This document shows, piece by piece, positions 3,858-54,354 of a stretch of DNA of 64,000 bases. Within the stretch, counting starts at the first letter, position 1; each line of letters begins with the position of its first letter. The stretch comes from Pirellulaceae bacterium (lineage in GTDB: Bacteria > Planctomycetota > Planctomycetia > Pirellulales > Pirellulaceae), in NCBI GenBank assembly GCA_016784735.1, contig JADHUC010000010.1:1-64000 (forward strand). Direction: 5' to 3'. The notes below the pieces were generated by a model, which was given only the letters and a program-made list of their open reading frames with translations, was not told where the DNA came from and did not search any database. A program made the position numbers and the translations under genes.

Positions 3858-3922
3858 GTAGCCGGAGTCGCAAGACTTCGGGGGTTCGCCGCTCCGACCC
3901 GAAGTGTTGCCACTCCGGCTAC
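3858..3922. repeat. palindromic intergenic repeat, 'tagccggagt' type
   Basis: 25-base arms at 3858-3882 and 3898-3922 pair with two mismatches around a 15-base loop. The arm begins gtagccggagtcgcaag. It lies between the methyltransferase and the propeller gene and could also terminate transcription. The long arms and core (gccgga/tccggc) recall other palindromes in the window. Confidence 0.85.
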
Positions 3923-3966
3923 GACACTTGTTTCTCGAACGAACTTACCCCATGAAGGAGAGACTC

Positions 3967-6900
3967 ATGAGAGGTCTTCACCTGATTCGCCACAGATCGT
4001 TTGCGTGCATTGCATTAGGCTTTGCGTTTGTCTTGCCGATGTTGCTTGTCAACGCGGCCGTTGCGGCTGAGATCCCCGCCGATCTGCTCAAGCAAACGGG
4101 CATTCCTGGCGGGCTGGTCGTTCAGCTTGGCTGTGACGAAGCATCGTCGATCACTGGCCTGAGGCTCCATGAGGGCTTCAAAGTACTGGCGTTGGATGTG
4201 GACGCCACGAAGGTCGACGGCGTCCGCCAATCGATCCAAGCGAAAGGTGTCTATGGGGACGTCACGGCGGACCGATTTGACGGCAAGCGGCTACCGTTGA
4301 TCGACAACGTGGTCAACGCACTGTTCATCACACAACCGTATCAAGTGAGCGACGCGGAGATCTTGCGCGTCTTGTGTCCGGATGGCATCGCCTTCCTGAG
4401 AAGCGAAGGCCGCTGGGGACAAGTGGTTAAGACGCGCCCTGACGAGATCGACATCTGGACGCACTTCCTGCACGACCCTTCGAACAACGCCGTGGCCCAC
4501 GACAAGGTGATCAACGTACCGCGGCGACTGCAGTGGACGGGCGGACCGCGATACTCGCGTCATCATGACCACATGGCCAGCGTCAGTGCCATGGTCAGCA
4601 ACGGGCCGCAGGTGTTCTATATCATCGACATGGGCTCGCGCTGGTCCATCGAGGTCCCCGCCGACTGGCACTTGGTGGCTCGCGACGCGTTCAACGGTAC
4701 GACCCTGTGGACCAAGCCGATGGGTCGTTGGTTCACGCACCATTACTCTCTGAAGAGCGGTCCCGGCGATCTGCCAAGACGTTTGGTGGCGGTTGGCGAC
4801 GAGGTGTTCTTTTCGCCGGCGATCGACGCACCCCTGGAGAAAGTCGACGCCGCGACGGGGCGCACGCTTAAGCGATACGAGGAAACGGCGGCGACCGAAG
4901 AAATCGTGTACCACGATGGCACCCTGTTTCTGAAGGTGAATCGTCCGGAGAACCAAATTGAATTCGAGACGATCCAAGCGGCGCGGAATCACAACGGCGG
5001 TGTCTCCTTCAATCTGGATCCGCGGCGCGTCATGGCCGTCGATGCCGAATCGGGCGAGGTGCTCTGGCAGCGCGAGTCGGTTGTGATGCCTACGACTCTG
5101 GCCGCCGATTCGAAACGTGTCTATTACCACGACGGCGAAGCGGTCGTATGTCTTGATCGAGAATCCGGCGACGAATTGTGGAAGCAACCGGTGAGCCGCT
5201 GGTCGAAGATGCAGACCTTCTTCACACCGACGCTGGTCCTGTACGACGACATCGTGCTGTTCGCGGGCGGCGAGAAGATGGTGCCGCATCGCGGTGGCAA
5301 AGATTCGATGACTGCGATGGACGCCGAAACCGGAGAGATCCGCTGGACGGCCTATCATCCACAAGGCGGATACATGTCCGCCGAGGACGTCTTGGTTGCC
5401 GGCGGGCTGGTTTGGGCCGGTGAGACGACCAGCGGCGGGTACGACGGTATGTTCACCGGGCGTGACCCGAAGACGGGCGAGGTGAAGATCGAGTTCGCAC
5501 CGGACGTGGAGACCTATTGGTTCCACCACCGCTGTTATCGCGGCAAAGCCACCGACGACTTTCTGCTGATGTCGCGCACCGGTATCGAAGTCCTCGATCC
5601 GGCCAACCAACACTGGACGATCAACCACTGGGTCCGTGGCGGCTGTCTGTACGGCATCATGCCGTGCAACGGATTGATCTATGCGCCGCCCAGCAACTGT
5701 GCCTGCTATCCGGAGATCAAACTGTTCGGGTTCAACGCCCTGGCACCGGCCGCGCCGGAAGGCCAAACGGTACCGGTCACGCCTGAAGACGCACGTTTGG
5801 AGAAAGGCCCGGCTTTCGCACAAATCGAAAATCGGCAATCGCAAATCGCAAATTCGACTGATTGGCCGACCTATCGTGGCGGCAACGGACGCAGCGGCTG
5901 CACGGAATCCGAAGTTCCCGCAGATGTCGGCGTGCGTTGGACATCCGATATCGGAGGACGCCTGACCGCGCCGGTCGTCGCCGACGGTCGAGTCTATGTG
6001 GCGGCGGTCGACACCCACACCGTGTTCGCTCTGTCAGAGAAGGACGGTCAAACGCAATGGAGCTACATGACTGGCGGCCGGGTCGATTCGCCTCCGACCG
6101 TGTGCCAGGGACGTGTCTACTTCGGCTCGGCTGATGGCTGGGTTTATTGCCTTCGCGCCGCGGACGGCGAACTCGCTTGGCGTTACTTGGCCGCACCGTG
6201 CGATCGTCGTTTGGTTGCATACGACCAGATCGAATCGCTCTGGCCAGTCCGCGGAAACGTGTTGATCGAAGACGGTCGTCTCTACACGATCGCCGGGCGG
6301 AACGCCTTTGTTGATGGCGGCTTGCGATTGGTCATCCTCGATCCGGCAACCGGCGTTCTGGTGGACGAGACGCAAATCGACGACACCGATCCGGACACGG
6401 GCGAGAACCTCCAGTCGCGAACGATGGTCCTGAATATGCCCACGGGTTTGAACGACATTCTCTCCAGCGACGGCAAGAACATCTATCTGAAATCCCAAGT
6501 CCTGGACAAGGACGGCCAGCGCGGCGACCTGGGGCCGCACAGCGGAGAACCGGCGAAACAAGGTGCGGTGCAGCGGGGCGAAACGGCCCATCTGTTCGCT
6601 CCCTTCGACGGGTTCGTCGACGGCGATTGGTTCCACCGTTCGTACTGGGTCTACGGCCGCAGCTTTGCCGGCGGACACAGTGGTTATCACCAGGCTGGAA
6701 AATTCGCTCCGGCCGGCCGCATCCTGGTGTTCGACGACCAGAACGTCTATGGCTTCGGACGAAAGCCCCAGTACTACCGATGGACGACTCCACTGGAGCA
6801 CCAGTTGTTCTGCGCAGACAAGGTGCCGCTGGAACCGCAAACCGCCCGTCGAACTCCCGCGAAAATGGTCCAGGTGCTGAACACGCCTGCCCTGAATCCG

Positions 6901-7863
6901 GCGGAAAAGCCCGTGGTAGTCGAAGCGTGGGTCAAGGCCGAGAAACCCGACGGCGTCATCGTGGCTCGCGGCGGCCCTTCCCATGGTTTCGCCCTCGTGC
7001 TTCGTGGCGGTGTGCCGCGGTTCGTGATACGAAGCGACAACGAGCTATTCTCTGCTTCCGCAGGCAAGAAGAAGATCCTTGGCGACTGGCATCATTTGGC
7101 GGGCGTGTTGACGGTCGGCAAGCAACTGAAGATCTACATCGACGGCCAGCTTGCCGGCACAAAAGACGTCCCGCGTCTGATCGCCGGCGATCCGAAGCAG
7201 AACATGGAAATCGGCTCGGACGAAGACGGCGGCGTGGGCGACTACAAGGGCACGTTTTCAATGGGCGGCCTGATCGACGACGTCAAGCTGTACTTCGGCA
7301 CGCTCAGCGACGAAGAAATCTCGCGTCACGCCAGCGAAGGGCCGTCCGACACGAAAGCGGCCGACGCCGAACTGGTGTTTCACGCCATGTTTGACGACGG
7401 CAAAGCAAAAGACAACTCGGGCAAGGGACACGATGGCGAGGTCGTGGGCATCGAGTCCGCACCCGGCAAGTTCGGCAAGGCGTTGCGTTTCCAAGCGAAT
7501 CGCCGGGCGGCACCCAAATACTACGTTGCGCACAAGTGGACCCGCGACGTCCCACTGCTGGTTCGTGCCATGGCAAAATCCGGCGACAAGCTGTTCATCA
7601 TGGGCCCGCCGGATGTGCTTGATGAAGACGCGGCCTTCACCACGGCGATGAGCCCCGAGTTGGAGGCGCAACTGAAAGCTCAAGACGATGCAATCCGCGG
7701 TGCCAAAGGCGCCATACTGATGGTCGTATCAGCCACCGACGGCGAAGTCCTGGCAGAAACCACGCACCCGGAACTGCCGCGATGGGACGGCATGGCCGTC
7801 GCCGACGGCCGACTGTTCATCACAACCGAAGGCGGAAAGCTGGTGTGCATGGGAGAAGAATAA
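3967..7863 (+). CDS. exported methyltransferase-like / PQQ beta-propeller fusion with LamG insert (paralogue A)
   Basis: About 1298 residues. ATG 3967 is chosen because aaggag lies six bases before it; ATG 3952 is the alternative. A signal peptide covers residues 1-31. Residues 45-165 are a Rossmann methyltransferase-like domain (GGLVVQLGCDEASS, then a 'RFDGKRLPLIDNVVN' strand), but the glycine-rich loop reads GCDEA instead of the GCGDG of paralogues B-D, so SAM binding is probably lost. A WTHFLHDPSNNAVAHD block leads into quinoprotein-type propeller repeats (ALSEKDGQTQW, CLDRESGDELW). A conserved CACY sits near 577. Residues about 965-1123 are a LamG/concanavalin-like domain (DWHHLAGVLTVGKQLKIYID) absent from the paralogues, followed by the common C-terminal blade (RDVPLLVRAM, GPPDVLDED, WDGMAVADGRLF). 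The protein is probably periplasmic; its function is unknown. Confidence 0.85.
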   Translation: MRGLHLIRHRSFACIALGFAFVLPMLLVNAAVAAEIPADLLKQTGIPGGLVVQLGCDEASSITGLRLHEGFKVLALDVDATKVDGVRQSIQAKGVYGDVTADRFDGKRLPLIDNVVNALFITQPYQVSDAEILRVLCPDGIAFLRSEGRWGQVVKTRPDEIDIWTHFLHDPSNNAVAHDKVINVPRRLQWTGGPRYSRHHDHMASVSAMVSNGPQVFYIIDMGSRWSIEVPADWHLVARDAFNGTTLWTKPMGRWFTHHYSLKSGPGDLPRRLVAVGDEVFFSPAIDAPLEKVDAATGRTLKRYEETAATEEIVYHDGTLFLKVNRPENQIEFETIQAARNHNGGVSFNLDPRRVMAVDAESGEVLWQRESVVMPTTLAADSKRVYYHDGEAVVCLDRESGDELWKQPVSRWSKMQTFFTPTLVLYDDIVLFAGGEKMVPHRGGKDSMTAMDAETGEIRWTAYHPQGGYMSAEDVLVAGGLVWAGETTSGGYDGMFTGRDPKTGEVKIEFAPDVETYWFHHRCYRGKATDDFLLMSRTGIEVLDPANQHWTINHWVRGGCLYGIMPCNGLIYAPPSNCACYPEIKLFGFNALAPAAPEGQTVPVTPEDARLEKGPAFAQIENRQSQIANSTDWPTYRGGNGRSGCTESEVPADVGVRWTSDIGGRLTAPVVADGRVYVAAVDTHTVFALSEKDGQTQWSYMTGGRVDSPPTVCQGRVYFGSADGWVYCLRAADGELAWRYLAAPCDRRLVAYDQIESLWPVRGNVLIEDGRLYTIAGRNAFVDGGLRLVILDPATGVLVDETQIDDTDPDTGENLQSRTMVLNMPTGLNDILSSDGKNIYLKSQVLDKDGQRGDLGPHSGEPAKQGAVQRGETAHLFAPFDGFVDGDWFHRSYWVYGRSFAGGHSGYHQAGKFAPAGRILVFDDQNVYGFGRKPQYYRWTTPLEHQLFCADKVPLEPQTARRTPAKMVQVLNTPALNPAEKPVVVEAWVKAEKPDGVIVARGGPSHGFALVLRGGVPRFVIRSDNELFSASAGKKKILGDWHHLAGVLTVGKQLKIYIDGQLAGTKDVPRLIAGDPKQNMEIGSDEDGGVGDYKGTFSMGGLIDDVKLYFGTLSDEEISRHASEGPSDTKAADAELVFHAMFDDGKAKDNSGKGHDGEVVGIESAPGKFGKALRFQANRRAAPKYYVAHKWTRDVPLLVRAMAKSGDKLFIMGPPDVLDEDAAFTTAMSPELEAQLKAQDDAIRGAKGAILMVVSATDGEVLAETTHPELPRWDGMAVADGRLFITTEGGKLVCMGEE
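5821..5855 (+). repeat. short-period in-frame repeat (aatcgcaa type) in paralogue A
   Basis: Seven-base-spaced copies of 'aatcgsaa' are translated as IENRQSQIAN at the hinge just before DWPTYRGG. Equivalent tracts occupy the same hinge in paralogues B and D. Confidence 0.75.
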
Positions 7864-15877: not shown

Positions 15878-15969
15878 TCGTTTAACCCGAAGCCGGAGGC
15901 GATGGCGCGTGCCGCGTCTGGGCGATCCATGCCGCTGCCCACCATCGCCTCCGGCTTCGGGTTAAACGA
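15878..15969. repeat. perfect 28-base-arm palindrome, 'gtttaaccc' type
   Basis: The arms at 15878-15905 and 15942-15969 are exact reverse complements, with a 36-base loop. The arm begins tcgtttaacccgaagccgga. It is almost the same element as the one at 19165-19247, differing in the 'ccgaag/cgcaag' step and the loop. Confidence 0.95.
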
Positions 15970-19164: not shown

Positions 19165-19247
19165 CGTTTAACCGCAAGCCGGAGGCGTGCGCGTGGAGGG
19201 GAGCCTGTTTGGTGATCGCGCGCACGCCTCCGGCTTGCGGTTAAACG
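19165..19247. repeat. perfect 29-base-arm palindrome overlapping a stop codon
   Basis: The arms at 19165-19193 and 19219-19247 are exact reverse complements. The arm begins cgtttaaccgcaagccgga. The right arm contains the TAA stop (19241-19243) of the minus-strand CoA-disulfide reductase gene. Lying between convergent genes, it may serve as a bidirectional terminator. Confidence 0.95.
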
Positions 19248-21072: not shown

Positions 21073-21135
21073 GTAGCTACGCTCGCCAGAGCGTGGGGGA
21101 GCAGCCGGAGCCCACGGTCTGGCGACCGTAGCTAC
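21073..21135. repeat. palindrome, 'gtagctacgctcgcc' type
   Basis: 25-base arms at 21073-21097 and 21111-21135 pair with two mismatches around a 13-base loop. It lies about 50 bases before the sigma-factor start, in its presumed leader. Confidence 0.85.
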
Positions 21136-26256: not shown

Positions 26257-29200
26257 ATGAGAGGCACATTCGCCTTTGCAGTTGCTACTGCCATTTCAGT
26301 GGCAATGGTCGCTGGGATCTGTACGGCACAAGAGCAGAAATTGACGGCCAGGCAAATTATTGACGCGGCCGGCGTCCAAGGCGGACTTGTCGTCCACGTG
26401 GGTTGTGGCGACGGACGGCTGACCGCGGCGCTACGAACGTGCGATAGCTACATGGTGCAGGGCTTGGACACCGATGCGGCAAACGTCCGGAAGGCACGCG
26501 CGCACATCCGGTCACTCGGGCTTTACGGGAACGTATCTGTCGACGCATTCGATGGCGAGCGTCTGCCCTACATCGACAACCTTGTCAATCTTGTTGTGGT
26601 TTCAGGTGTCAGTGTTCAGGTTTCGGGAGACGAGATAGCTCGCGTACTTGCGCCGGGAGGAGTCGCGTTGGTGAAACACGACCATGGGCTTCCCGACACC
26701 CGACACCTGACACCCGACACCTCCCCAGTCCTACCAGGCTGGACCAAACTCACCAAACCCCGGCCCGACACGATCGACGAATGGACGCACTATCTGCATG
26801 GTCCCGGCAACAACGCGGTCGCGCACGACACGGTTGTCGGGCCGCCGCGTCGGATGCAGTGGGTGGGCAGCCCCAGGTACTCGCGACACCACGACCACAT
26901 GTCGAGCTTGAGCGCCGTGGTCTCGGCTGGCGGTCGGGTCTTCTACATCTTCGACGAAGCAACGCCCGCGTCCGTCCTGGCGCCGTCGAAGTGGGCTTTG
27001 ATCGCGCGCGATGCCTTCAACGGAACCGTCCTCTGGAAGCGGCCCATCGACAACTGGCACACGCACCTGTGGAAGCTCAAAAGCGGCCCCGCGCAGTTGC
27101 CCCGGCGGCTGGTTGCCAGCGGCGACCGCGTGTATGTCACGCTGGGCCTCGATGCACCGCTCGTGGCGCTCGACGCGGCCACAGGTAAAACGATCCGGAC
27201 GTACGACGGCACCAAGGCCACAGAAGAAGCGATCCTCTCGGATGGTAGTCTGTTTGCACTCGTGAACGACGCCGAAGAGAAACCAGACTACGACGGCCGG
27301 AAGCGGTTCCGCGGCTCGTACAATGCCAAGTTCTGGGACGAGGAGAAGAGGAAGATCGTGGCTGTTCGCGCGGACACGGGCGAAGTCCTGTGGACCTCCG
27401 AACGACGCGTCTTGCCGACTACTTTGGCCGCCGATACCAAACGTGTCGCCTTCCACGACGGCCAGAGCGTGGTCTGTCTGGACCGCACGACGGGCGACGA
27501 GATTTGGCGTTCCGAGGCGATCGCCCGCAGCGAGGAAATCCGCGGGTTCTATGCACCCATCCTGGTTTTGTACGAAGACGTCGTGCTGTTCTCCGGCGGT
27601 GAAACCGCCGGCAAGCAGACCGGCAGTTGGTACGAAAGTGGCCAGGACACGATGACCTCACTCGATGCGGCAACCGGTAGAGTGCTGTGGTCGGCGTACC
27701 ATCCGCCGTCCGGTTACCGATCACCGGAGGACTTGCTGGTCGTCGACGGGCTGGTGTGGACCGGCGAGACAACCAGCGGCCGGGCTGTTGGCGTGTTCAC
27801 CGGCCGTGACCCGCGTACGGGCGAGGTGAAGCGCGAATTCCCGCCCGATGTCTCGACCTATTGGTTTCATCACCGCTGCTATCGCAGCAAAGCCACGGAC
27901 AATTTCCTGCTGACGTCGCGGACCGGCATCGAGTTCCTGGACGTCCGCGAGGAGCATTGGATCCCGCACCACTGGGTCCGCGGAGCGTGTTCATACGGCA
28001 TCATGCCGGCCAACGGCCTGATCTATGCCCCGCAGCACCCGTGTGCGTGCTACCTGGAAGCGAAGATGTACGGCTTTAACGCGTTGGCGCCGGAGCCGGA
28101 AGTTCGAAACCGGAAACTGGAAACTCGAAACTGGGAAAACCGGCTGCAAACGGGACCGGCGTTTGGACAAATCGGAAATCGCAAATCGCAAATCGAAAAT
28201 CCCCATGATTGGCCTACTTACCGGCACGACGCGGCGCGTAGCGGGCGAGCGAGTACGTCCGTTCCGGCGGCGCTCGGGCGAGCTTGGCAAGCTGATATTG
28301 GCGGTCGACTGACAAGCCCCGTTATCGCCGGGGGCAAGGTCTTTGTGGCCTCGGTGGATACGCATACCGTCCACGCGGTCGACGCTGCCTCGGGCAGACA
28401 GGTTTGGCAATACACAGCCGGCGGGCGAGTCGATTCGCCGCCGACCATTTATCAGGGTCTTGTGTTGTTCGGCTGTGCCGATGGCTGCGTGTATGCCCTG
28501 CGCGCAGCGGACGGCCAGCTCGTTTGGCGATTCCGCGCGGCACCGATGGACCAACGTCTGACGGCGTTCGAGCAGGTCGAGTCGGTTTGGCCCGTACCGG
28601 GCAGCGTGCTCGTCCAGGACGACGTTTTGTATTGTGTGGCGGGCAGATCGATGTTCCTGGACGGCGGTTTGCGGCTGTGGCGGCTGGAGCCGACGACGGG
28701 ACGCGTGTTGTCGGAGACCGTGCTGGACGATAGCGCCGCAGAGTCCGATCAGAGGTTGCAGAAGTACGTGAGTTGGCTGAACATGCCAACCGGTCTGCCG
28801 GACATCCTGTCTTGTGACGGCCGTTACGTCTACATGCGATCACAGCCGTTCAAGTTGGACGGGTCGCGCTTGCCGCTGGAGGCGATGCCAAGCGGGCCTG
28901 ACGCAGATCGCGGAGCACCGCCAGCGACACAGCGAGCCGACATCGCACATCTGTTCAGCCCCACCGGCTTTCTGGACGACACCTGGTGGCACCGCACTTA
29001 CTGGATGTACGGCAGCCGATTCGTCAGCGGCTGGTGCGGATACTTCCGAGCCGGCAAGGCGACTCCGTCGGGTCGGATTCTGGTGTTCGACGAATCGAAG
29101 ATCTACGGCTTCGGCCGCAAGCCCAAGTACTACCGGTGGACAACGCCGATCGAACATCACCTGTTCGCCGCCGACAAGACGCCGCCGCCCGCGTCTCAGT

Positions 29201-29574
29201 CGCCCGACGAACGACCGGGAGAAGGCGACTATCTGGTCGACCTTCACTGGACCAACGATCTGCCATTGCTTGCTCGAGCGATGGTATTGGCCGACGGCAC
29301 GCTCTTCGTCGCCGGGCCGCCGGACTTGGTCGACGAAGATCAGGCGCTGAAGACCATTGATGCCCCGGCGACCCAGGCGAAGCTCGTTGATCAGGTCAAT
29401 GCCTTCGAAGGCAAACAAGGCGCGCTGCTCTGGGCGATGTCCGCCGACGATGGAGAGAAGTTAGCCGAGTGCCAACTCGACGCGCCGCCAGTCTTCGATG
29501 GCATGGCGGCGGCCGCGGGCCGTCTCTACTTCGCGACGACCGACGGCAAGCTCGTTTGTATGGCCGGCAGGTAG
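26257..29574 (+). CDS. exported methyltransferase-like / PQQ beta-propeller fusion (paralogue B)
   Basis: 1105 residues from ATG 26257 after a strong ribosome site (aggagagaagaacc). A signal peptide spans 1-25 (AFAVATAISVAMVAGICTAQ). The Rossmann domain keeps a complete SAM-type loop, VVHVGCGDGRLTAAL (about 43-57), with motif II VQGLDTDAANV and motif IV LPYIDNLVNLVVVSG. A block shared with the other paralogues follows (TIDEWTHYLHGPGNNAVAHD), then propeller repeats such as ALDAATGKTIRTYDGT and CLDRTTGDEIWRSEA. A CACY motif sits near 595, then a second propeller half from DWPTYRHDAARSG. Whether the domain can methylate is doubtful outside the cytosol. Its partner downstream on the opposite strand is a Skp-like lipoprotein gene. 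Confidence 0.85.
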   Translation: MRGTFAFAVATAISVAMVAGICTAQEQKLTARQIIDAAGVQGGLVVHVGCGDGRLTAALRTCDSYMVQGLDTDAANVRKARAHIRSLGLYGNVSVDAFDGERLPYIDNLVNLVVVSGVSVQVSGDEIARVLAPGGVALVKHDHGLPDTRHLTPDTSPVLPGWTKLTKPRPDTIDEWTHYLHGPGNNAVAHDTVVGPPRRMQWVGSPRYSRHHDHMSSLSAVVSAGGRVFYIFDEATPASVLAPSKWALIARDAFNGTVLWKRPIDNWHTHLWKLKSGPAQLPRRLVASGDRVYVTLGLDAPLVALDAATGKTIRTYDGTKATEEAILSDGSLFALVNDAEEKPDYDGRKRFRGSYNAKFWDEEKRKIVAVRADTGEVLWTSERRVLPTTLAADTKRVAFHDGQSVVCLDRTTGDEIWRSEAIARSEEIRGFYAPILVLYEDVVLFSGGETAGKQTGSWYESGQDTMTSLDAATGRVLWSAYHPPSGYRSPEDLLVVDGLVWTGETTSGRAVGVFTGRDPRTGEVKREFPPDVSTYWFHHRCYRSKATDNFLLTSRTGIEFLDVREEHWIPHHWVRGACSYGIMPANGLIYAPQHPCACYLEAKMYGFNALAPEPEVRNRKLETRNWENRLQTGPAFGQIGNRKSQIENPHDWPTYRHDAARSGRASTSVPAALGRAWQADIGGRLTSPVIAGGKVFVASVDTHTVHAVDAASGRQVWQYTAGGRVDSPPTIYQGLVLFGCADGCVYALRAADGQLVWRFRAAPMDQRLTAFEQVESVWPVPGSVLVQDDVLYCVAGRSMFLDGGLRLWRLEPTTGRVLSETVLDDSAAESDQRLQKYVSWLNMPTGLPDILSCDGRYVYMRSQPFKLDGSRLPLEAMPSGPDADRGAPPATQRADIAHLFSPTGFLDDTWWHRTYWMYGSRFVSGWCGYFRAGKATPSGRILVFDESKIYGFGRKPKYYRWTTPIEHHLFAADKTPPPASQSPDERPGEGDYLVDLHWTNDLPLLARAMVLADGTLFVAGPPDLVDEDQALKTIDAPATQAKLVDQVNAFEGKQGALLWAMSADDGEKLAECQLDAPPVFDGMAAAAGRLYFATTDGKLVCMAGR
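26692..26724 (+). repeat. short-period in-frame repeat (cgacacc type) in paralogue B
   Basis: Copies of cccgacacc/cctgacacc are read as PDTRHLTPDTSP in the hinge between the Rossmann domain and the WTHYLH block. Paralogue D has nearly the same tract at the same place. Confidence 0.8.
28098..28201 (+). repeat. two short-period tracts at hinge 2 of paralogue B
   Basis: At 28098-28140 a 'ggaaactgg/cgaaact' tract reads as EVRNRKLETRNWENR. At 28168-28201 an 'aatcgcaa' tract reads as IGNRKSQIEN. Together they form a linker before DWPTYRHD that has no domain character. Confidence 0.75.
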
Positions 29575-30225: not shown

Positions 30226-30499
30226 AGTCAACTCCCTACGCATAGGACTGCTAGCAGAACGCCCTTCTCCGCGTGGGCGGGAAGATAGTGTCAATCGACA
30301 ACAGCCACCAGATCAATCCTGCCAAAACATTAATGTGCGTTCACGCCCCAACATGTCGGCTGGAGGTTGACGTCTTCGGTGCGCCCCGTTTGCCGGGCAT
30401 GGCAGGAAACGGCCCGCAGACAGTTGCATTCCTACCCGGTGCCCGGATAATCTGAAAATGGCTAGACGCATTCACTCTCTCGATACGGAGGCAAACGAC

Positions 30500-33400
30500 A
30501 TGATCAAGACAACGCGAAATGGCCGTCTTCTAAGTGTTGGTCTTCTCATTGCGGCGATCCTGGTTGTCGGTGTGGGAGTGTCGAGCGCTACGGTGGCGGC
30601 GGACAAGACCGATAACGATGTGCTGGCCAAACAGATCCTGGAAGAGACCGGCGTGCCAGGGGGGCTGATCGTTCATCTCGGCTGCGGTGACGGGAAGCTG
30701 ACGGCTGCGTTGCGCGCGAAGGACTGCTACCTGGTGCAAGGCCTGGACGCGGCCCCGGAGAATGTCGAAAAGGCCCGCCGGCACATCCGTTCCAAGGGAC
30801 TGTACGGCGACGTGTCGGTCGACCGCTTCGACGGAAAGCAATTGCCCTATGTCGACAACCTAGTGAATCTGATAGTGGCAAGTGGCGAGTGTCAGGTGCC
30901 AAGTGAGGAGATCGCCAGGGTGCTCGCCCCGAACGGTGTCTCCCTCGTCCTCAATAGGCAATCGGAAATCGACAATCGGAAATGGGTCAAGCCTCGGCCG
31001 AAAGAAATCGACGACTGGACCCACTACCTTTACGACGAAAGTGGAAACGCCGTTTCGCAGGACATGGTGGTCGGTCCGCCTCGCCACTTCCAATGGACCG
31101 GCAGTCCGCGGTGGGCGCGGCACCATGATCGTCGTGCGAGCGCCAGTGCGATGGTCTCGGCGGGCGGGCGGATCTTCTACATCTTCGACGAGGGCTCGAC
31201 CGCTTCGATCATGCTGCCGCCCAAGACAGTGCTGATCGCGCGGGATGCCTTCAACGGCACCATCCTTTGGAAGCGAGATATCCCAACGTGGCATACGCAT
31301 CTGTGGCCGTTCAAAAGCGGGCCCACCCAGCTCCAACGCCGCTTGGTGGCCATCGGCGAGGTGGTCTACGTCACGCTCGGGCTCGACGCGCCGCTAGTCG
31401 CCTTGGACGCGGTGACCGGTGAAACGGTGCGGACCTATGAAGACAGCCTTGCCACGGAGGAGGTAATTGCGTCGCAAGGCGTTTTGTTCTTGTTGGTCAA
31501 CAAGGAACCGCAGAAATACGACGACTTCAGACCCGAAGACGTGGGTATCGGCGCGGAACGCGACCGCGTGATGCGCGATTGGCCATGGAACGAGAAACCA
31601 CGACATGTCGTGGCGTTGGACGCGGGGACGGGGAAACATCTTTGGAATACAGAAACGCCCGTAGTTCCCCTGACGCTGGCAGTCGACGCGGATCGTGTCT
31701 ATTTGCACGACGGCGACAAGGTAGTTGCCCTGGACCGCAAGACCGGCGACCAGTTATGGAGTTCCGCCCCAGTGGACCGTCAGGAGAAGGTGCCCACAAA
31801 CATCACTCCGACCGTTGTGGTTCACGAGGACGTTGTCTTGTTCTATGGTGCGACGAGGAAGCTGACGGGCCTTTCGGCCAAGACCGGCGAGGTGTTATGG
31901 ACCGAGCCGCATCCCCGCTCGGGCCACTACTGCCCGGAGGACGTGTTGGTGGCCGGCGGCCTGGTGTGGGGCGGCGAAATTGCCGGCGGGCGCGATAGCG
32001 GCGTCTTCACTGGACGCGACCCGCGTACAGGTGAAATCAAAAGCCAGTTTCCGCCTGACATCGACATTTTCTTCATGCACCAACGATGCTATCGCAGCAA
32101 GGCGACGGACCGCTTTCTGATCCCCGGCTGGACCGGCACCGAATACATCGACTTCCGCAACGAGCACTGGGTCACAAATCACTGGGTGCGCGGCGGCTGC
32201 ATCTACGGGGTCATGCCGTGCAACGGTTTGACCTATACCACGCCCCACGCCTGCGCCTGCTATATGCAGGCAAAGTTGTACGGATTCTGCGCGCTGGCTG
32301 CGGAGCGAGAGTCGAAGAGTCAGCCAGAGGATCGGCTGGAACGCGGACCGGCATACGACGATGACATGGCCAGCGGAATGGTCATATTGGACGGAAAACC
32401 AGTTCCTGGCACGATCGTTGAATTTCGGCCGGAGGGTGGCGGCTCGCCTTCGCGTGGCGTGGTCGACGCAAAAGGTCGCTTCAAGCTGCGTATGGCGCCT
32501 GGTAAGTACTCCATCGCTATCAGCAACGTGGACGATCCTGAACAGCGCACGTCCAAGGAGATTGACAGCCCGGATCCTGGCGAATGGTCCACCTACCGCA
32601 ATGACCCGGCGCGTAGCGGATTCACGACGGCTTCCGTGTCTGCGGACTTGACGGCGAAATGGAAGGCCAAGCTAGGCGGTCGGCTATCGAGCGTCGTCGT
32701 CGCCGATGGCAAACTCTTCGTGGCGTCGGTGGATACGCATACGGTTCACGCACACAGCGCGGATTCCGGCGAGCCCGTATGGAGCTTCACGGCGGGGGGT
32801 CGCGTCGATTCGCCGCCGACGATCTGGAAAGGACGTGTGCTTTTCGGGAGTGCCGATGGATACGTGTATTGCCTGAGGGCTTCTGACGGCGAACTGGCGT
32901 GGCGTTTCCGCGCCGGGCCGGAGGATCGGCGGATGACGTCCTTCGAGCAAGTCGAATCGGTGTGGCCCGTCTCCGGTAGTGTGCTTGTGCAAGACGGTGT
33001 CGTCTATTGCGTGGCCGGCAGGTCGATGTTCCTGGACGGCGGTTTGCGTTACCTGCGGATCGACGCGGAAAGCGGCAAGTTGATCTCGGAGGTCATCTTC
33101 GACGAAAACGATCCGGAAACGGGCGAGAACCTGCAGACGCACGTCGAGGTCAGAAACATGCCGGTGGGGCTTCCCGATATCCTCTCCAGCGACGGTGAGT
33201 CCCTGTATATGCGTTCGCAGCAATTCGATATGGAAGGCAAACGTAGTTCGCTGGTCCAAATCAAGGGCACGGACGCCAATCGAGGTGCCGATCAGCAGGG
33301 CCCGGCCACACACCTGTTTTCGCCTACCGGTTTCCTGGACGACACTTGGTGGCACCGGTCCTACTGGGTCTACGGCCAGCGTTTTTCGGAAGGAGCCGGC

Positions 33401-33982
33401 GGCTGGCCTCAGGCCGGCAAGTTCGCCCCGGCCGGTCGAATCATGGCAATGAACGACTCCAACGTATACGGCTTCGGCCGAAAGCCGGTGTACTATAAGT
33501 GGCGAACGCCGCTGGAATATCACTTGTTTTCCGCCGGCAAGAAGCCGGAAATCGTACGCCAAGCGGTCGGCCCCGCTCCGAAGGCCAAACCCGGCTCGAA
33601 GCCCGCGGCAAAGCGCCGGGCGGGACCGCGGGTGCAACATCCCCACTACGAATGGTCGCGCACCATACCGTTCTTTGTCCGCGCAATGGTCCTGGCCGAC
33701 AAGACGCTGTTCATCGTCGGTCCGCCGGATGTGGTGGACGAGGAGGAAGCCTTTCGCCGAGTCGGTGATCCCGATATGGATGCAAAGCTTGCCGAGCAAG
33801 ATGCCGTACTGAACGGCTCGCGAGGCGCCCTGCTTTGGGCGGTCTCTGCGGAGAATGGCGATAAGCTGGCCGAGCACAAACTCGACTGCCTACCCGTCTT
33901 CGACAGCCTGATCGCCACGAAAGGCCACCTGTACATGGCCACCACCGACGGCCAGATCCTGTGCTTCCGTGGGAGTGAATAG
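30500..33982 (+). CDS. exported methyltransferase-like / PQQ beta-propeller fusion with carboxypeptidase-regulatory-like insert (paralogue C)
   Basis: About 1160 residues from ATG 30500, with ggagg nine bases upstream; the frame is open to 30458. A signal peptide spans about 1-34. The SAM-type loop IVHLGCGDGKLTAAL and motif LPYVDNLVNLIVASG are intact. The WTHYLYDESGNAVSQD block, propeller halves and a CACY motif follow. At the hinge where B and D carry repeat tracts, C has a 65-residue carboxypeptidase-regulatory-like beta domain (MVILDGKPVPGTIVEFRPEG, GRFKLRMAPGKYSIAI), then EWSTYRNDPARSG. Near the C-terminus a Pro/Ala/Lys stretch (APKAKPGSKPAAKRRAG) sits where A has its LamG domain. The gene appears monocistronic. 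Confidence 0.85.
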   Translation: MIKTTRNGRLLSVGLLIAAILVVGVGVSSATVAADKTDNDVLAKQILEETGVPGGLIVHLGCGDGKLTAALRAKDCYLVQGLDAAPENVEKARRHIRSKGLYGDVSVDRFDGKQLPYVDNLVNLIVASGECQVPSEEIARVLAPNGVSLVLNRQSEIDNRKWVKPRPKEIDDWTHYLYDESGNAVSQDMVVGPPRHFQWTGSPRWARHHDRRASASAMVSAGGRIFYIFDEGSTASIMLPPKTVLIARDAFNGTILWKRDIPTWHTHLWPFKSGPTQLQRRLVAIGEVVYVTLGLDAPLVALDAVTGETVRTYEDSLATEEVIASQGVLFLLVNKEPQKYDDFRPEDVGIGAERDRVMRDWPWNEKPRHVVALDAGTGKHLWNTETPVVPLTLAVDADRVYLHDGDKVVALDRKTGDQLWSSAPVDRQEKVPTNITPTVVVHEDVVLFYGATRKLTGLSAKTGEVLWTEPHPRSGHYCPEDVLVAGGLVWGGEIAGGRDSGVFTGRDPRTGEIKSQFPPDIDIFFMHQRCYRSKATDRFLIPGWTGTEYIDFRNEHWVTNHWVRGGCIYGVMPCNGLTYTTPHACACYMQAKLYGFCALAAERESKSQPEDRLERGPAYDDDMASGMVILDGKPVPGTIVEFRPEGGGSPSRGVVDAKGRFKLRMAPGKYSIAISNVDDPEQRTSKEIDSPDPGEWSTYRNDPARSGFTTASVSADLTAKWKAKLGGRLSSVVVADGKLFVASVDTHTVHAHSADSGEPVWSFTAGGRVDSPPTIWKGRVLFGSADGYVYCLRASDGELAWRFRAGPEDRRMTSFEQVESVWPVSGSVLVQDGVVYCVAGRSMFLDGGLRYLRIDAESGKLISEVIFDENDPETGENLQTHVEVRNMPVGLPDILSSDGESLYMRSQQFDMEGKRSSLVQIKGTDANRGADQQGPATHLFSPTGFLDDTWWHRSYWVYGQRFSEGAGGWPQAGKFAPAGRIMAMNDSNVYGFGRKPVYYKWRTPLEYHLFSAGKKPEIVRQAVGPAPKAKPGSKPAAKRRAGPRVQHPHYEWSRTIPFFVRAMVLADKTLFIVGPPDVVDEEEAFRRVGDPDMDAKLAEQDAVLNGSRGALLWAVSAENGDKLAEHKLDCLPVFDSLIATKGHLYMATTDGQILCFRGSE
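30873..30984 (+). repeat. short-period tracts at hinge 1 of paralogue C
   Basis: At 30873-30904 an 'agtggc/aagtg' tract, and at 30957-30984 an 'aatcggaa' tract read as RQSEIDNRKW, both lie between the Rossmann domain and the WTHYLY block. Confidence 0.7.
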
Positions 33983-47814: not shown

Positions 47815-48517
47815 GTTGGCCCCCGGTCGCCAGCTTTGCGAAAGAGTGCGTCGGTCCCACATCGGCCCAGCGATCTTCATCGAGAACATCCATACACGGA
47901 AATCACGGGCTGCAATGCCATCGGACATTCTCGAAGCACCACCAGATGTGATGTGATCCTTCACAATTAGGGAAAGAAAGACGCGAAGAACGACCATCGC
48001 GCGCATTTGTTCGGCAGGACGTCTGACGCGCATCAACTTCGCAACACGCCGCACACGGCCGTGACGACTATTCTGTTGCCGGAAGAGTACTGCCCACCAG
48101 TTCCGAAGTTGGACAGGTTCGCTTCGGCGAATCACAAGAGAAATCAAGCCGCATGATTCTCGACAGAACTAAGCCTGCGAGCTATGCCACGCGACGTGTT
48201 GGCGAAGGTGCGGCAGAGACATTTGGGCGGGCAATCTGAGTCGCGGCTTAAACCGTATACAACGTTGGAGCCCTGATCGTCCCCGTGTCCGTTTTCAAAC
48301 TGCTACACTGCAACCGGTCAGGATTTGCGGAAATGGTACGATGGCCCTCCGAGGCCGTTGATCGCCAGCCAGTGCCGACGGCCTCGGAGGGCCATCGTAC
48401 AAAACCCCAGATTTCACCCGATTTGAGTATAACAACCAGACGAACGCTTACGACCGATTCCGCAACACGCGTGCGCGACGAATAGTTGCTGCCAACCGAA
48501 ACTGTAGGAGGCCCATC
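47815..48517. other. 703-base gap with one palindrome, no gene supported
   Basis: No frame has a good start and plausible protein composition. The minus-strand frame 47734-48147 overlaps the previous gene and reads as basic filler. A 31-codon plus-strand frame at 48185-48280 (MPRDVLAKVRQRHLGGQSES) looks protein-like but is too short to assign; it may be a gene remnant. The promoter of paralogue D should lie after the palindrome. Confidence 0.4.
48336..48400. repeat. palindrome, 'gtacgatggccctccgagg' type
   Basis: 25-base arms at 48336-48360 and 48376-48400 pair at 24 positions around a 15-base loop. It stands about 115 bases before paralogue D. Confidence 0.9.
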
Positions 48518-51500
48518 ATGCATACGACAAGACCGCTGATCGGACACACGCCGGCCGGGCTGTGTTCGATGGCAGCCGTATTCTGTTTCACGAGCGTCCT
48601 GGTGCAAGCGGACACGTCCGCCGAGAGCCCAGAGAAAAAGCTGGCGCGGCAAGTCTTCGAGGCGACCGGCGTCCGGGGGGGTCTGGTTGTCCATTTGGGA
48701 TGCGGTGACGGCCGGCTTACCGCCGCGCTGCGCAAAGACGACGGCTATATGGTACAGGGGCTCGACTCGGACGCAGATCGAGTGCAGCAGGCACGCGAGA
48801 ATGTCCGGTCGCTCGGCATCTACGGGCCTGTTTCGATCGAGCGTTTCGACGGAGGCCGCCTGCCCTACATCGACAACCTGGTCAATCTTGTTGTGGTTTC
48901 TGGTCCCGGTGTTCGGGTGTCAGCGGACGAAGTAGCTCGTGTGCTCGCCCCAGGAGGTACCGCCTTGGTGCAACAGGATCTCGTCTTTCCCGACACCCGA
49001 CACCTGACACCCGACACCTCCCCGACCCTGCCAGGCTGGATCAGGCTTACCAAACCCAGGCCCGACACCATCGACGAATGGACACACTGGCTGCACGGCC
49101 CTGACGGAAACGCGGTGGCCGATGACCGAGTCGTGGCGCCGCCGCGGCGTGTGCAATGGCTCGCGCCGCCCCGATGGCAGCGGCACCACGAGGCGTCACC
49201 CAGCATGAGTGCCATGGTTTCGTCAGGAGGCCGGGTGTTCGCCATCATCAACGAGGCCCCGACGGGTATCGACGCGATGCCGGACCGCTGGACGGTTGTT
49301 GCGCGCGACGCATTCAACGGGAAACTGCTGTGGAAGCGGCCGATCGCGGAATGGGGTTGGAGCGAGTGGAGCGATCACTCGTACGGCAACGGCCGCTGGA
49401 ATCATCCGACACACGTCGCACGACGCTTGGTTGCGGTAGGAGACCGCGTTTACGTGACCCTGAATTTCAATGCGCCGCTGACGGCGTTGGACGCGGCGAC
49501 CGGCCGTACGGTGATGACCTATGCGGAAAGCCAATTTGCCGACGAGATCCTCTATCACGAGGGGACTTTGGTCTTGTCAGTCAACATCGCCCCAACAGGT
49601 CCCGGAAGCCTCAAGGTGAACCCTCCCGTGAAGAAGGAGGTCATGGCGTTTAACGCGCAAACGGGCGAGGTTCTCTGGAAAGCGGGCGGCTTTGTGGGGA
49701 TCGCTTCGAAGGCGGACGCTGTCGAGCGGGTCACCCACCTTTCCTTGGTCTTAGGCGACGACAAGGTGTTTTGCCTGGAAGAGGACGCGGTCGTCGCTTT
49801 GGACATGAAGTCGGGCGAACGGCTGTGGCGTACCGAACGGGCCCCTCGCGAGCGCGCCGTGACCTACGGCAGTTACTATTTCACAAATCTCTGCAGTATG
49901 GTCTATCACGATCAAGTCGTGCTTTTCATGGAGCCCGATCCGAAACTCACCAAACAGCCTTGGAACGGTCCGGCCAAGGCGACGCTGTTGGGCATCTCGG
50001 CGGAAACGGGCGACGTGCTTTGGACGCGCCCGGTCGGTTTGTGGGGGCATTACAACCAGGGCGATATCCTTGTCATCGACAACGTGGCGTGGGTACACGA
50101 CGGAGGATCATTCTCGATGCTCGGCCTGGATCCGCGCACCGGGGAAGTGAAGCGGACACTACCGACACAAGAGGCTCTGGATCAAGGGCACCATCACCGC
50201 TGTTACCGCAACAAGGCCACACCGCGCTTCGTTATCACGGGACGGCGAGGAGTCGAATTCGTCAACATCGAGTCCGAGGACAATTCACGGCATCATTGGA
50301 CACGCGGAACGTGCCGATACGGCGTTATGCCCTGTAACGGACTTCTGTACGTGCCGCCGCACCCATGCATCTGCTACATCACAGCCAAGCTAAACGGCTT
50401 CTGGGCGTTGGCGCCGGAAAGAGAGTCGAAAGGTGGAAAAGTCGAAGAGTCGAAAAGTGAGGGGCGTCTAGAGCAAGGCCCAGCATATGGGCAAATCGGC
50501 AATCAACAATCGGCAATCGCAAATCCCGACGATTGGCCGACGTATCGTCATGATGCGGCCCGCAGTGGATGCGCCGGCAGCGTCGTTGCCGACAAGCTAT
50601 CGCGAGCGTGGAGCACCGACGCTGGCGAGCGGTTGAGCAGCCCGGTTGTTGCGGGCGGAAGCGTTTTCCTGGCTTCGACCGATACCCATACGGTCTGGGC
50701 CGCCGACGCCGACGATGGCAAACGGCGGTGGAGTTTCACGGCCGGCGGACGAATCGACACGCCGCCGACGGTCTATTCGTTCGTAGTACCGCCTTCAGGC
50801 GGCTCCCCCGAGACGGATAAGAACACACGCTCCACGCAAGAACCGCCTAAAGGCGGGACTACGAACAGCGTTTGTCTGTTCGGATCGGCCGACGGGTGGG
50901 TGTATTGCCTGCGGGCGGCGGACGGACAGTTAGTGTGGCGGTTGCGCGCGGCGCCAGACGAAACGCGGATGGTCAATGACGACCAATTGGAATCGCCTTG
51001 GCCAGTGCACGGGAACGTATTGGTTCAAGACGGCGTGGCCTACTTTGCCGCTGGCCGATCCTCGTTCCTGGACGGTGGCATGTATGTCTATGCCGTCAAG
51101 CCGGAAACGGGAGAGGTGCTCCACGAAACGCGCGTTAACAGTCTCGACACGGAAACGGGCGATATGGTCGAAGCCCGGTTGCCCTACGACATGCCGCCGG
51201 ATTCCCTGGGAGCATTGCCCGATGTTTTGGTAGGCGACGGTGGCAATGTCTACATGCGACACCTGAAGTTCGACTCGTCGGATCTGACCTACGCAAGCTC
51301 CGCCAAAACCACAAAGGCGAAACGCGGTGCGTACCCGGCCGTGGGCACTCACTTGATGGCCGTCGCGGGCCTGTTGGACGACGACTGGTTCAATCAGACG
51401 TACTGGACGGTCGACGGCAAAGCGCACAGTAAACTGCTGGTGTTCGACGCCGACGCCGCGTATGGAGTCAAGCCGTTCCCCGGCAGCGCAAGGCATTCTC

Positions 51501-51844
51501 GGGCAATCTTCACACCGGGTTCGAAGGGGTACACACTGTTTGCCAGCGAGCGCCCAGGCCACAAGGCACGATGGTCGACGCAGGTTCCATTGCGCGTCCA
51601 GGCCATGGTGATCGCCGGCCCGACGCTTTTCGTGGCCGGCACGCCCGACGTGGTCGATCCCGACGATCCATGGTCGGCAATCGACGGCAAAAAGGGTGGC
51701 ATCCTTTGGGCGGTTTCGACCGCGGACGGGAAGAAGCTGGCCGAGTACCCGCTGGACGCTCCGCCGATCTTCGACGGCATGGCCGCAGCGAATGGCCGAC
51801 TGTACATTTCGACCACGGATGGTAACGTCGTGTGCCTCAAGTAG
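48518..51844 (+). CDS. exported methyltransferase-like / PQQ beta-propeller fusion with translated palindrome (paralogue D)
   Basis: 1108 residues from ATG 48518, with aggaggcccatc upstream. The signal region is about 1-31. The SAM-type loop VVHLGCGDGRLTAAL and LPYIDNLVNLVVVSG are intact. The WTHWLHGPDGNAVADD block, propeller repeats (ALDMKSGERLWRTE) and a CICY motif follow, with the second half from DWPTYRHDAARSG. Two short-period DNA tracts lie at the usual hinges. In the second half, between GGRIDTPPTVY and CLFGSADGWVYCLRAADG, about 33 extra residues (SFVVPPSGGSPET...) come from an inserted palindrome; A, B and C have about five residues there. Downstream, the 331-residue gene starts 29 bases later and may be co-transcribed. 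Confidence 0.85.
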   Translation: MHTTRPLIGHTPAGLCSMAAVFCFTSVLVQADTSAESPEKKLARQVFEATGVRGGLVVHLGCGDGRLTAALRKDDGYMVQGLDSDADRVQQARENVRSLGIYGPVSIERFDGGRLPYIDNLVNLVVVSGPGVRVSADEVARVLAPGGTALVQQDLVFPDTRHLTPDTSPTLPGWIRLTKPRPDTIDEWTHWLHGPDGNAVADDRVVAPPRRVQWLAPPRWQRHHEASPSMSAMVSSGGRVFAIINEAPTGIDAMPDRWTVVARDAFNGKLLWKRPIAEWGWSEWSDHSYGNGRWNHPTHVARRLVAVGDRVYVTLNFNAPLTALDAATGRTVMTYAESQFADEILYHEGTLVLSVNIAPTGPGSLKVNPPVKKEVMAFNAQTGEVLWKAGGFVGIASKADAVERVTHLSLVLGDDKVFCLEEDAVVALDMKSGERLWRTERAPRERAVTYGSYYFTNLCSMVYHDQVVLFMEPDPKLTKQPWNGPAKATLLGISAETGDVLWTRPVGLWGHYNQGDILVIDNVAWVHDGGSFSMLGLDPRTGEVKRTLPTQEALDQGHHHRCYRNKATPRFVITGRRGVEFVNIESEDNSRHHWTRGTCRYGVMPCNGLLYVPPHPCICYITAKLNGFWALAPERESKGGKVEESKSEGRLEQGPAYGQIGNQQSAIANPDDWPTYRHDAARSGCAGSVVADKLSRAWSTDAGERLSSPVVAGGSVFLASTDTHTVWAADADDGKRRWSFTAGGRIDTPPTVYSFVVPPSGGSPETDKNTRSTQEPPKGGTTNSVCLFGSADGWVYCLRAADGQLVWRLRAAPDETRMVNDDQLESPWPVHGNVLVQDGVAYFAAGRSSFLDGGMYVYAVKPETGEVLHETRVNSLDTETGDMVEARLPYDMPPDSLGALPDVLVGDGGNVYMRHLKFDSSDLTYASSAKTTKAKRGAYPAVGTHLMAVAGLLDDDWFNQTYWTVDGKAHSKLLVFDADAAYGVKPFPGSARHSRAIFTPGSKGYTLFASERPGHKARWSTQVPLRVQAMVIAGPTLFVAGTPDVVDPDDPWSAIDGKKGGILWAVSTADGKKLAEYPLDAPPIFDGMAAANGRLYISTTDGNVVCLK
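48988..49021 (+). repeat. short-period in-frame repeat (cgacacc type) in paralogue D
   Basis: The tract cgacacccgacacctgacac, followed by a further ccgacacc copy, is read as PDTRHLTPDTSP at hinge 1, the same place and phase as in paralogue B. Confidence 0.8.
50420..50525 (+). repeat. two short-period tracts at hinge 2 of paralogue D
   Basis: At 50420-50460 a 'gagtcgaaa' tract reads as ERESKGGKVEESKSE. At 50491-50525 an 'aatcggca' tract reads as IGNQQSAIAN before DWPTYRHD. Confidence 0.75.
50780..50865. repeat. palindrome inserted in frame within paralogue D
   Basis: 26-base arms at 50780-50805 and 50840-50865 pair with three mismatches. The left arm starts ttcgtagtaccgccttcagg. It is translated as FVVPPSGGS...PPKGGTTN and adds no stop codon. 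Confidence 0.92.
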
Positions 51845-54241: not shown

Positions 54242-54354
54242 GCTGGTTATAGATTAGTGGTTATAAATGGAAGAACAGAAGAAAATACGCAATCACGGCT
54301 AGCGGCAAATCGATTTCCTGCTCTTCGATCTATAACCACCAATCTATAACCAGC
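54242..54354. repeat. inverted repeat, 'ctggttatagatt' type
   Basis: 24-base arms at 54242-54265 and 54331-54354 pair with one mismatch over a 65-base AT-richer interior. The arm begins gctggttatagattagtgg. It differs from the GC-rich palindromes elsewhere and ends 44 bases before the sulfatase start. Confidence 0.9.

What the first reader, a model, noticed from the sequence alone, without database searches (positions are those of the whole stretch)
50780..50865. Palindromic repeat inserted and translated inside paralogue D
An 86-base element with 26-base arms sits between PPTVY and CLFGSADG, where A, B and C have about five residues. It adds the loop FVVPPSGGS...PPKGGTTN with no stop. The phase appears suited for protein-coding insertion, giving a recent mobile-like event in a coding gene.
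Basis: partly seen in the sequence, partly recalled or inferred. Interest (0 to 1): 0.65.

Follow-up and report, generated by a model that had tools for sequence, protein, structure and literature searches.

The report
Translated palindromic repeat shared by paralogues
A short mobile-type DNA hairpin, of a kind bacteria usually carry between genes, lies inside a protein gene without breaking it, and the same hairpin sits at exactly the same spot in three other, only distantly similar, copies of that gene family in the same genome.

Summary
Window 50779-50866 is a near-perfect hairpin (z -6.9) that adds 29 codons (FVVPPSGG-13 residues-PPKGGTTN) to a 1108-aa methyltransferase/PQQ-propeller gene. 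It is one of about 39 inverted pairs of the 20-mer GTAGT-N-CCGCCT-TY-AGGCGG in this genome, with patchy occurrence in other genomes of the class. Its design (GTAG foot, perfect stem, TY loop, inverted doublet, variable spacer) is that of a GTAG-tagged REP doublet (BIME/REPIN), a kind known to occur inside genes, including in the PVC superphylum. "Recent event" is not shown and is too simple. Of 73 paralogues read in this genome, four carry the element at the identical codon, in the same orientation, frame and 80-nt length; 69 have the empty five-residue turn. The four hosts are not one clade (AU p about 1e-54), yet their loops are homologous, and three share the same arm combination. So one intragenic copy probably moved between paralogues, most likely by gene conversion; one pair shares a 47/48-nt tract abutting the element. 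Arms stay conserved while loops drift, as in intergenic copies. No RAYT transposase carrying this repeat was found. AlphaFold places the insert in an exposed beta-hairpin turn. New member of a known kind.

The parts
48518..51844 (+). host gene D, 1108 aa: N-terminal class-I methyltransferase-like domain plus PQQ/BamB-type beta-propeller repeats; one of more than 100 related loci in this genome
   Evidence: ORF; Pfam PQQ_2 E 1.4e-31, Methyltransf_25 E 6.1e-9; paralogues
50780..50866 (+). inserted element, net 87 nt = 29 codons (hairpin 50779-50866)
50783..50802 (+). left REP arm GTAGTACCGCCTTCAGGCGG (50780-50803 encodes FVVPPSGG)
50804..50842 (+). variable loop, 13 codons SPETDKNTRSTQE; homologous with but diverged from the loops of the three sister insertions
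50843..50862 (-). right REP arm GTAGTCCCGCCTTTAGGCGG (50843-50866 encodes PPKGGTTN on +)
50759..50779 (+). left flank, PPTVYS region; strand of the propeller hairpin that takes the insert
   Evidence: AlphaFold strand E93-99 of the modelled segment
50867..50890 (+). right flank, SVCLFGSA; next strand of the hairpin, with no duplication of the left flank
30458..33982 (+). paralogue with the empty site (PPTI-WKGR-VLFGSADG)
26257..29574 (+). paralogue with the empty site (PPTIYQGLVLFGCADG)
3904..7863 (+). paralogue with the empty site (PPTVCQGRVYFGSADG)

Best explanation
A GTAG-tagged REP doublet (BIME/REPIN-like, non-autonomous mobile palindrome) inserted without frameshift into a surface beta-hairpin turn of a PQQ-type propeller protein and is translated there as a flexible 29-residue loop. 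Shown: family membership by copies and design, an in-frame open reading through it, empty sites, position in the turn (model), four same-site copies in hosts that are not one clade, homologous loops. Inferred: (1) original mobilisation on single-stranded DNA by a RAYT/TnpA-REP-type HUH enzyme, not identified here; (2) after one original insertion, transfer between paralogues by gene conversion or recombination, possibly with the conserved arms as exchange points; (3) persistence because the turn tolerates a hydrophilic loop, so that the insert is near-neutral. A specific role for the peptide is not indicated.
For: About 39 inverted arm pairs genome-wide. Arm design equals GTAG REPs: GTAG foot, 6-bp perfect stem, TY loop, inverted doublets 20-100 bp apart (PMC3733652); doublets with conserved ends and a spacer are the REPIN definition (PMC3116915). 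Arms are 92% and loops 52% identical in 23 copies of the 67-nt class, nearly all outside genes, with position 6 always paired C-G or G-C, so arm conservation belongs to the element and not to the protein. Patchy in related genomes: the arm-pair pattern hits 4 of 148, and in a class-wide draw 5 of 398, each including the own genome, control 0. Four same-site copies, 69 empty; hosts not one clade, 0 of 200 bootstrap trees, AU p 1.75e-54. Loops homologous: codon-shuffle joint P < 5e-5. D, C162 and C88 share the same arm combination including an A-G mismatch at position 6. C162 and C418 share 47 of 48 nt just upstream of the element, the most alike of all own pairs (next 0.90). AlphaFold (mean pLDDT 83.5, pTM 0.88): strands 93-99 and 123-131 flank the insert, whose centre (residues 101-120) has pLDDT 66-68. 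The same family lies in frame in other real genes.
Against: No Y1_Tnp gene in the eight genomes checked is clearly flanked by this repeat (one imperfect single arm about 500 nt from L305). Own genome is a MAG, 79% complete with 5.5% contamination. Only one of six pairs of insert-bearing genes shows a conversion tract; the other flanks are as diverged as the rest of the genes. Grouping C418 with C88 is not rejected (AU p 0.38), so three transfers may suffice. No genome of the same genus is held, so no orthologue with the insert was seen.
Confidence: 0.75

Rival explanations
1. Independent, site-specific insertions: the transposition machinery recognises a target at the conserved PPT-Y / LFGSADG hairpin DNA, and separate REPINs hit the same codon three or four times.
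For: Hosts are spread over the tree, each nearer to empty-site relatives. Most flanks of the four show no shared tract. No target duplication, as expected for IS200/IS605-like strand transfer. Over 100 targets are available.
Against: All four have the same 80-nt length, seen nowhere else among the 39 pairs. Loops are homologous. Three share the same arm combination. C162 and C418 share an upstream tract. 69 paralogues with similar target DNA are empty.
Confidence: 0.2
2. One ancient insertion in the common ancestor of the gene family, lost from the other paralogues.
For: Loops are homologous; position and length are identical.
Against: Needs dozens of precise losses: 69 own paralogues and every outside homologue read at the site are empty, including D's nearest relatives L179-L181. 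One-clade grouping is rejected. Arms are 83-100% identical at DNA level although synonymous sites of the hosts are saturated.
Confidence: 0.04
3. A domesticated functional peptide or RNA element: the hairpin is kept by selection in these genes (mRNA structure, translation pausing, or a binding loop).
For: Arms are nearly invariant while the loop and gene diverge; strong fold; hydrophilic loops of equal length.
Against: Copies outside genes show the same conserved arms and drifting loops. 69 paralogues do without it. No Rfam match. The peptide is of low confidence, probably flexible, in the model.
Confidence: 0.1
4. Assembly or contamination artefact of a metagenome bin.
For: 450 contigs, 5.5% contamination.
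Against: Four copies on four contigs with different loops inside long open frames; the same element family is found in several other assemblies.
Confidence: 0.02

Closest known systems
GTAG-tagged REP repeats and dimers, including intragenic ones (Di Nocera et al. 2013, PMC3733652)
   Same: GTAG terminus, 6-9 bp perfect stem, TY loop, inverted dimers, several families per genome, presence in Planctomycetes (R. baltica is named) and Verrucomicrobia, dimers inside genes encoding 20-30 residues, including uvrA; here also a copy inside a UvrA gene (L292)
   Different: That paper's text, as read here, reports no same-site copies in several paralogues of one genome; whether this exact stem is one of its 24 families could not be read because figures are not held
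REPINs (Bertels and Rainey 2011, PMC3116915)
   Same: REP doublet in inverted orientation forming a hairpin, conserved ends, spacer between them, about 60-110 bp
   Different: REPINs are described as extragenic and tied to a RAYT gene; no cognate RAYT was found here
Rickettsia palindromic elements (RPE), as described in PMC3733652
   Different: No sequence comparison was made; the likeness is one of behaviour
Bacterial MITEs
   Same: Non-autonomous, inverted-repeat, no coding capacity of their own; the 67-nt class here is the core of a roughly 140-bp element with outer ends GAGCCGACGCATGAA
   Different: No target duplication seen; no matching DDE transposase was sought

Membership tests
GTAG REP / REP dimer (BIME) | terminal GTAG followed by a short perfect stem-loop | tested here: met
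   GTAGTN-CCGCCT-TY-AGGCGG, 62 exact and 83 one-mismatch copies, control 0-1
GTAG REP / REP dimer (BIME) | dispersed in many copies, single and as inverted dimers 20-100 bp apart | tested here: met
   about 39 inverted pairs, mostly 67 nt; many singlets in other genomes
REPIN | inverted REP doublet with ends more conserved than the spacer, able to form a hairpin | tested here: met
   arms 92%, loops 52% in the 67-nt class; fold z -6.9
REPIN | cognate RAYT (Y1/HUH transposase) gene flanked by the same REP | tested here: inconclusive
   14 Y1_Tnp matches in own genome and others in 7 genomes, none clearly flanked by this arm; own genome 79% complete
REPIN | mobility (excision or transposition observed) | not testable with these tools
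   needs reads or strains; only patchy occurrence in the class is seen
REPIN | extragenic location | tested here: not met
   this copy and several others lie inside genes in frame; most other copies look intergenic. Filed as an intragenic GTAG REP dimer, not as a proven REPIN
Rickettsia palindromic element (RPE) | sequence similarity to RPE families | not tested
   analogy only; no RPE sequence was compared
DDE MITE | target-site duplication | tested here: not met
   no duplicated flank; net 87-nt gain against empty sites

The most novel reading that the evidence does not exclude
A translated REP doublet that spreads by homing or conversion among paralogous genes: the same codon in members of a family of more than 100 genes is repeatedly taken by one intragenic element lineage, whose arms are kept nearly identical genome-wide while its coded loop diversifies, so that a selfish hairpin becomes a source of surface-loop variation.
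Probability: 0.3. Interest if true: 0.6.

Novelty: new member of a known kind. Interest (0 to 1): 0.4.

Why it matters
Intragenic REPs are known but are usually seen as single accidents. Four same-site copies in diverged paralogues of one genome, beside 69 empty ones, form a natural experiment on how a non-autonomous hairpin spreads between genes and how proteins absorb it. The set can separate site-specific insertion from gene conversion once related strains are sequenced. It also cautions annotators: VVPPSGG...PPKGGTTN-type stretches in such planctomycete proteins are translated repeats, not conserved domains.

Tried and rejected
Simple recent insertion in D only: rejected by the three other same-site copies. 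Single ancestral insertion with vertical descent: rejected by the tree and AU test. Selection on the coded peptide as the reason for arm conservation: not needed, since copies outside genes show the same pattern. Cognate RAYT: searched by Pfam Y1_Tnp in eight genomes, none flanked by this repeat; RAYT loci L043 and L044 have their own GTAG repeats (GTAGGTCCC..., GTAGGTTATGC...). Codon-usage scoring of flanks to count intragenic copies: weak signal, used only as a guide. Rfam: no match. Reading FVVPPSGG as a conserved protein motif: dropped, because it is the arm read in one frame.

Full report
Observation. Window 50779-50866 holds 27-nt inverted arms, 89% complementary, folding at -41.6 kcal/mol, z -6.9. 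ORF 48518-51844 reads through it. The ORF has an N-terminal methyltransferase-like domain and PQQ/BamB propeller repeats. Against paralogue 30458-33982 (PPTI-WKGRV-LFGSADG) the net addition is 29 codons, FVVPPSGG-SPETDKNTRSTQE-PPKGGTTN, 87 nt. No duplicated target is visible.

A repeat family. The arm GTAGTNCCGCCTNNAGGCGG has 62 exact and 83 one-mismatch matches in the own genome (control 0-1), forming about 39 inverted pairs. Most pairs are 67 nt and form the core of a roughly 140-bp element whose outer ends read GAGCCGACGCATGAA ... TTCATGCGTCGGCTC. In 23 of them arms average 92% and loops 52% identity, and position 6 is always C-G or G-C between the arms. Related genomes carry it patchily: 4 of 148 near relatives, and 5 of 398 in a draw from the class, each count including the own genome.

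What kind of thing it is. GTAG foot, perfect stem, TY loop and inverted doublets are the features of GTAG REPs described in PMC3733652, which also reports them in Planctomycetes and inside genes, uvrA among them. REP doublets with conserved ends and a spacer are REPINs (PMC3116915), thought to be moved by RAYT/TnpA-REP enzymes (PMC8266576). Y1_Tnp genes exist in all eight genomes checked, but none is clearly flanked by this arm. The link to a RAYT is therefore inferred.

Same-site copies. A search with the region around the insert gives 178 matches in the own genome, over 100 loci. In 73 of these the site could be read: 69 have the short turn, four carry the element (D; C162 = L110; C418 = L111; C88 = L112). 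All four have the 80-nt arm-to-arm length, not seen elsewhere in the genome, and the same orientation and frame. Their hosts share 44-51% amino-acid identity with saturated synonymous sites. Arm peptides are 75-100% and arm DNA 83-100% identical, loops 38-55% at DNA level.

Descent. With the insert removed, a tree of 150 homologues puts each host among empty-site relatives, some from other phyla. A careful tree of 40 rows needs four changes, with three forced by supported branches; in none of 200 bootstrap trees are the four one clade. The AU test rejects one clade (p 1.75e-54), but does not reject C418 with C88 (p 0.38). Yet the four loops are homologous: joint codon-shuffle P below 5e-5. D, C162 and C88 have the same arm combination, TTC-centre with A on the left and TTT-centre with C on the right, giving an A-G mismatch where the 67-nt copies pair. 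C162 and C418 also share 47 of 48 nt abutting the element upstream, the highest of all own pairs. Taken together this favours one intragenic element lineage passed between paralogues, probably by gene conversion, over independent insertions. I put this step at about 0.55-0.6.

Protein context. AlphaFold of the 450-residue C-terminal part (50 sequences, mean pLDDT 83.5, pTM 0.88) puts the insert (residues 97-125 of the model) between strands 93-99 and 123-131, with its centre at pLDDT 66-68: an exposed, probably flexible beta-hairpin turn. This explains tolerance. The same repeat family is translated elsewhere: in a UvrA gene (L292), a DUF1549/DUF1553 cytochrome-type protein (L293), a CARDB protein (L300), an AAA ATPase (L258), a DUF2079 membrane protein (L349), a histidine kinase (L064) and a secreted protein (L106). 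For these other genes the in-frame reading was seen and most have Pfam support, but their empty sites were not checked one by one.

Verdict. It is a new, well-resolved member of the known intragenic GTAG REP dimers, with same-site occupancy of several paralogues as its unusual feature.

Noticed in passing
G000; window 3904-7863, 26257-29574, 30458-33982, 48518-51844: Massive expansion, over 100 loci, of a roughly 1100-aa methyltransferase/PQQ-propeller protein family in one planctomycete genome, with members found in Planctomycetota, Verrucomicrobiota, Lentisphaerota, Armatimonadota and Sumerlaeota bins.
   Followed up: partly
window 50420-50540 and 48992-49018: In gene D and its paralogues a linker is built of translated simple repeats (AGTCGAAAAGTCGAA; CAATCGGCAATC), and D's N-terminal part has a translated GACACC-type repeat (PDTRHLTPDTSP). 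Different paralogues carry different repeat types at the same linker.
   Followed up: no
window 15878-15969 and 19165-19247: Palindromes GTTTAACC(CG/GC)AAGCCGGAGGC: a far more abundant family, 210 + 201 matches genome-wide, mostly inverted pairs.
   Followed up: partly
window 3858-3922, 21073-21135, 48336-48400, 54242-54354: Further long inverted repeats, two beginning with GTAG and ending with CTAC, likely other REP families.
   Followed up: no
L292 (record of G450), element at 1501-1589 of the locus: The same repeat family lies in frame inside a UvrA gene, matching the published report of REP dimers in uvrA of O. terrae (PMC3733652).
   Followed up: partly
L028, L073, L026: Copies near the N-terminus, just ahead of signal-peptide-like stretches, appear translated in frame; the true start codons are uncertain.
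   Followed up: no
L043, L044: Two Y1_Tnp genes flanked by their own GTAG repeats (GTAGGTCCCTTCTGCCGGAAGGGAC; GTAGGTTATGCTTCAGCATAAC), that is, likely REPtrons.
   Followed up: no
L179 (JABMRB010000903.1): Contig titled Candidatus Nealsonbacteria carries the closest outside relative of gene D (74% over the query), probably a mis-binned planctomycete contig.
   Followed up: no
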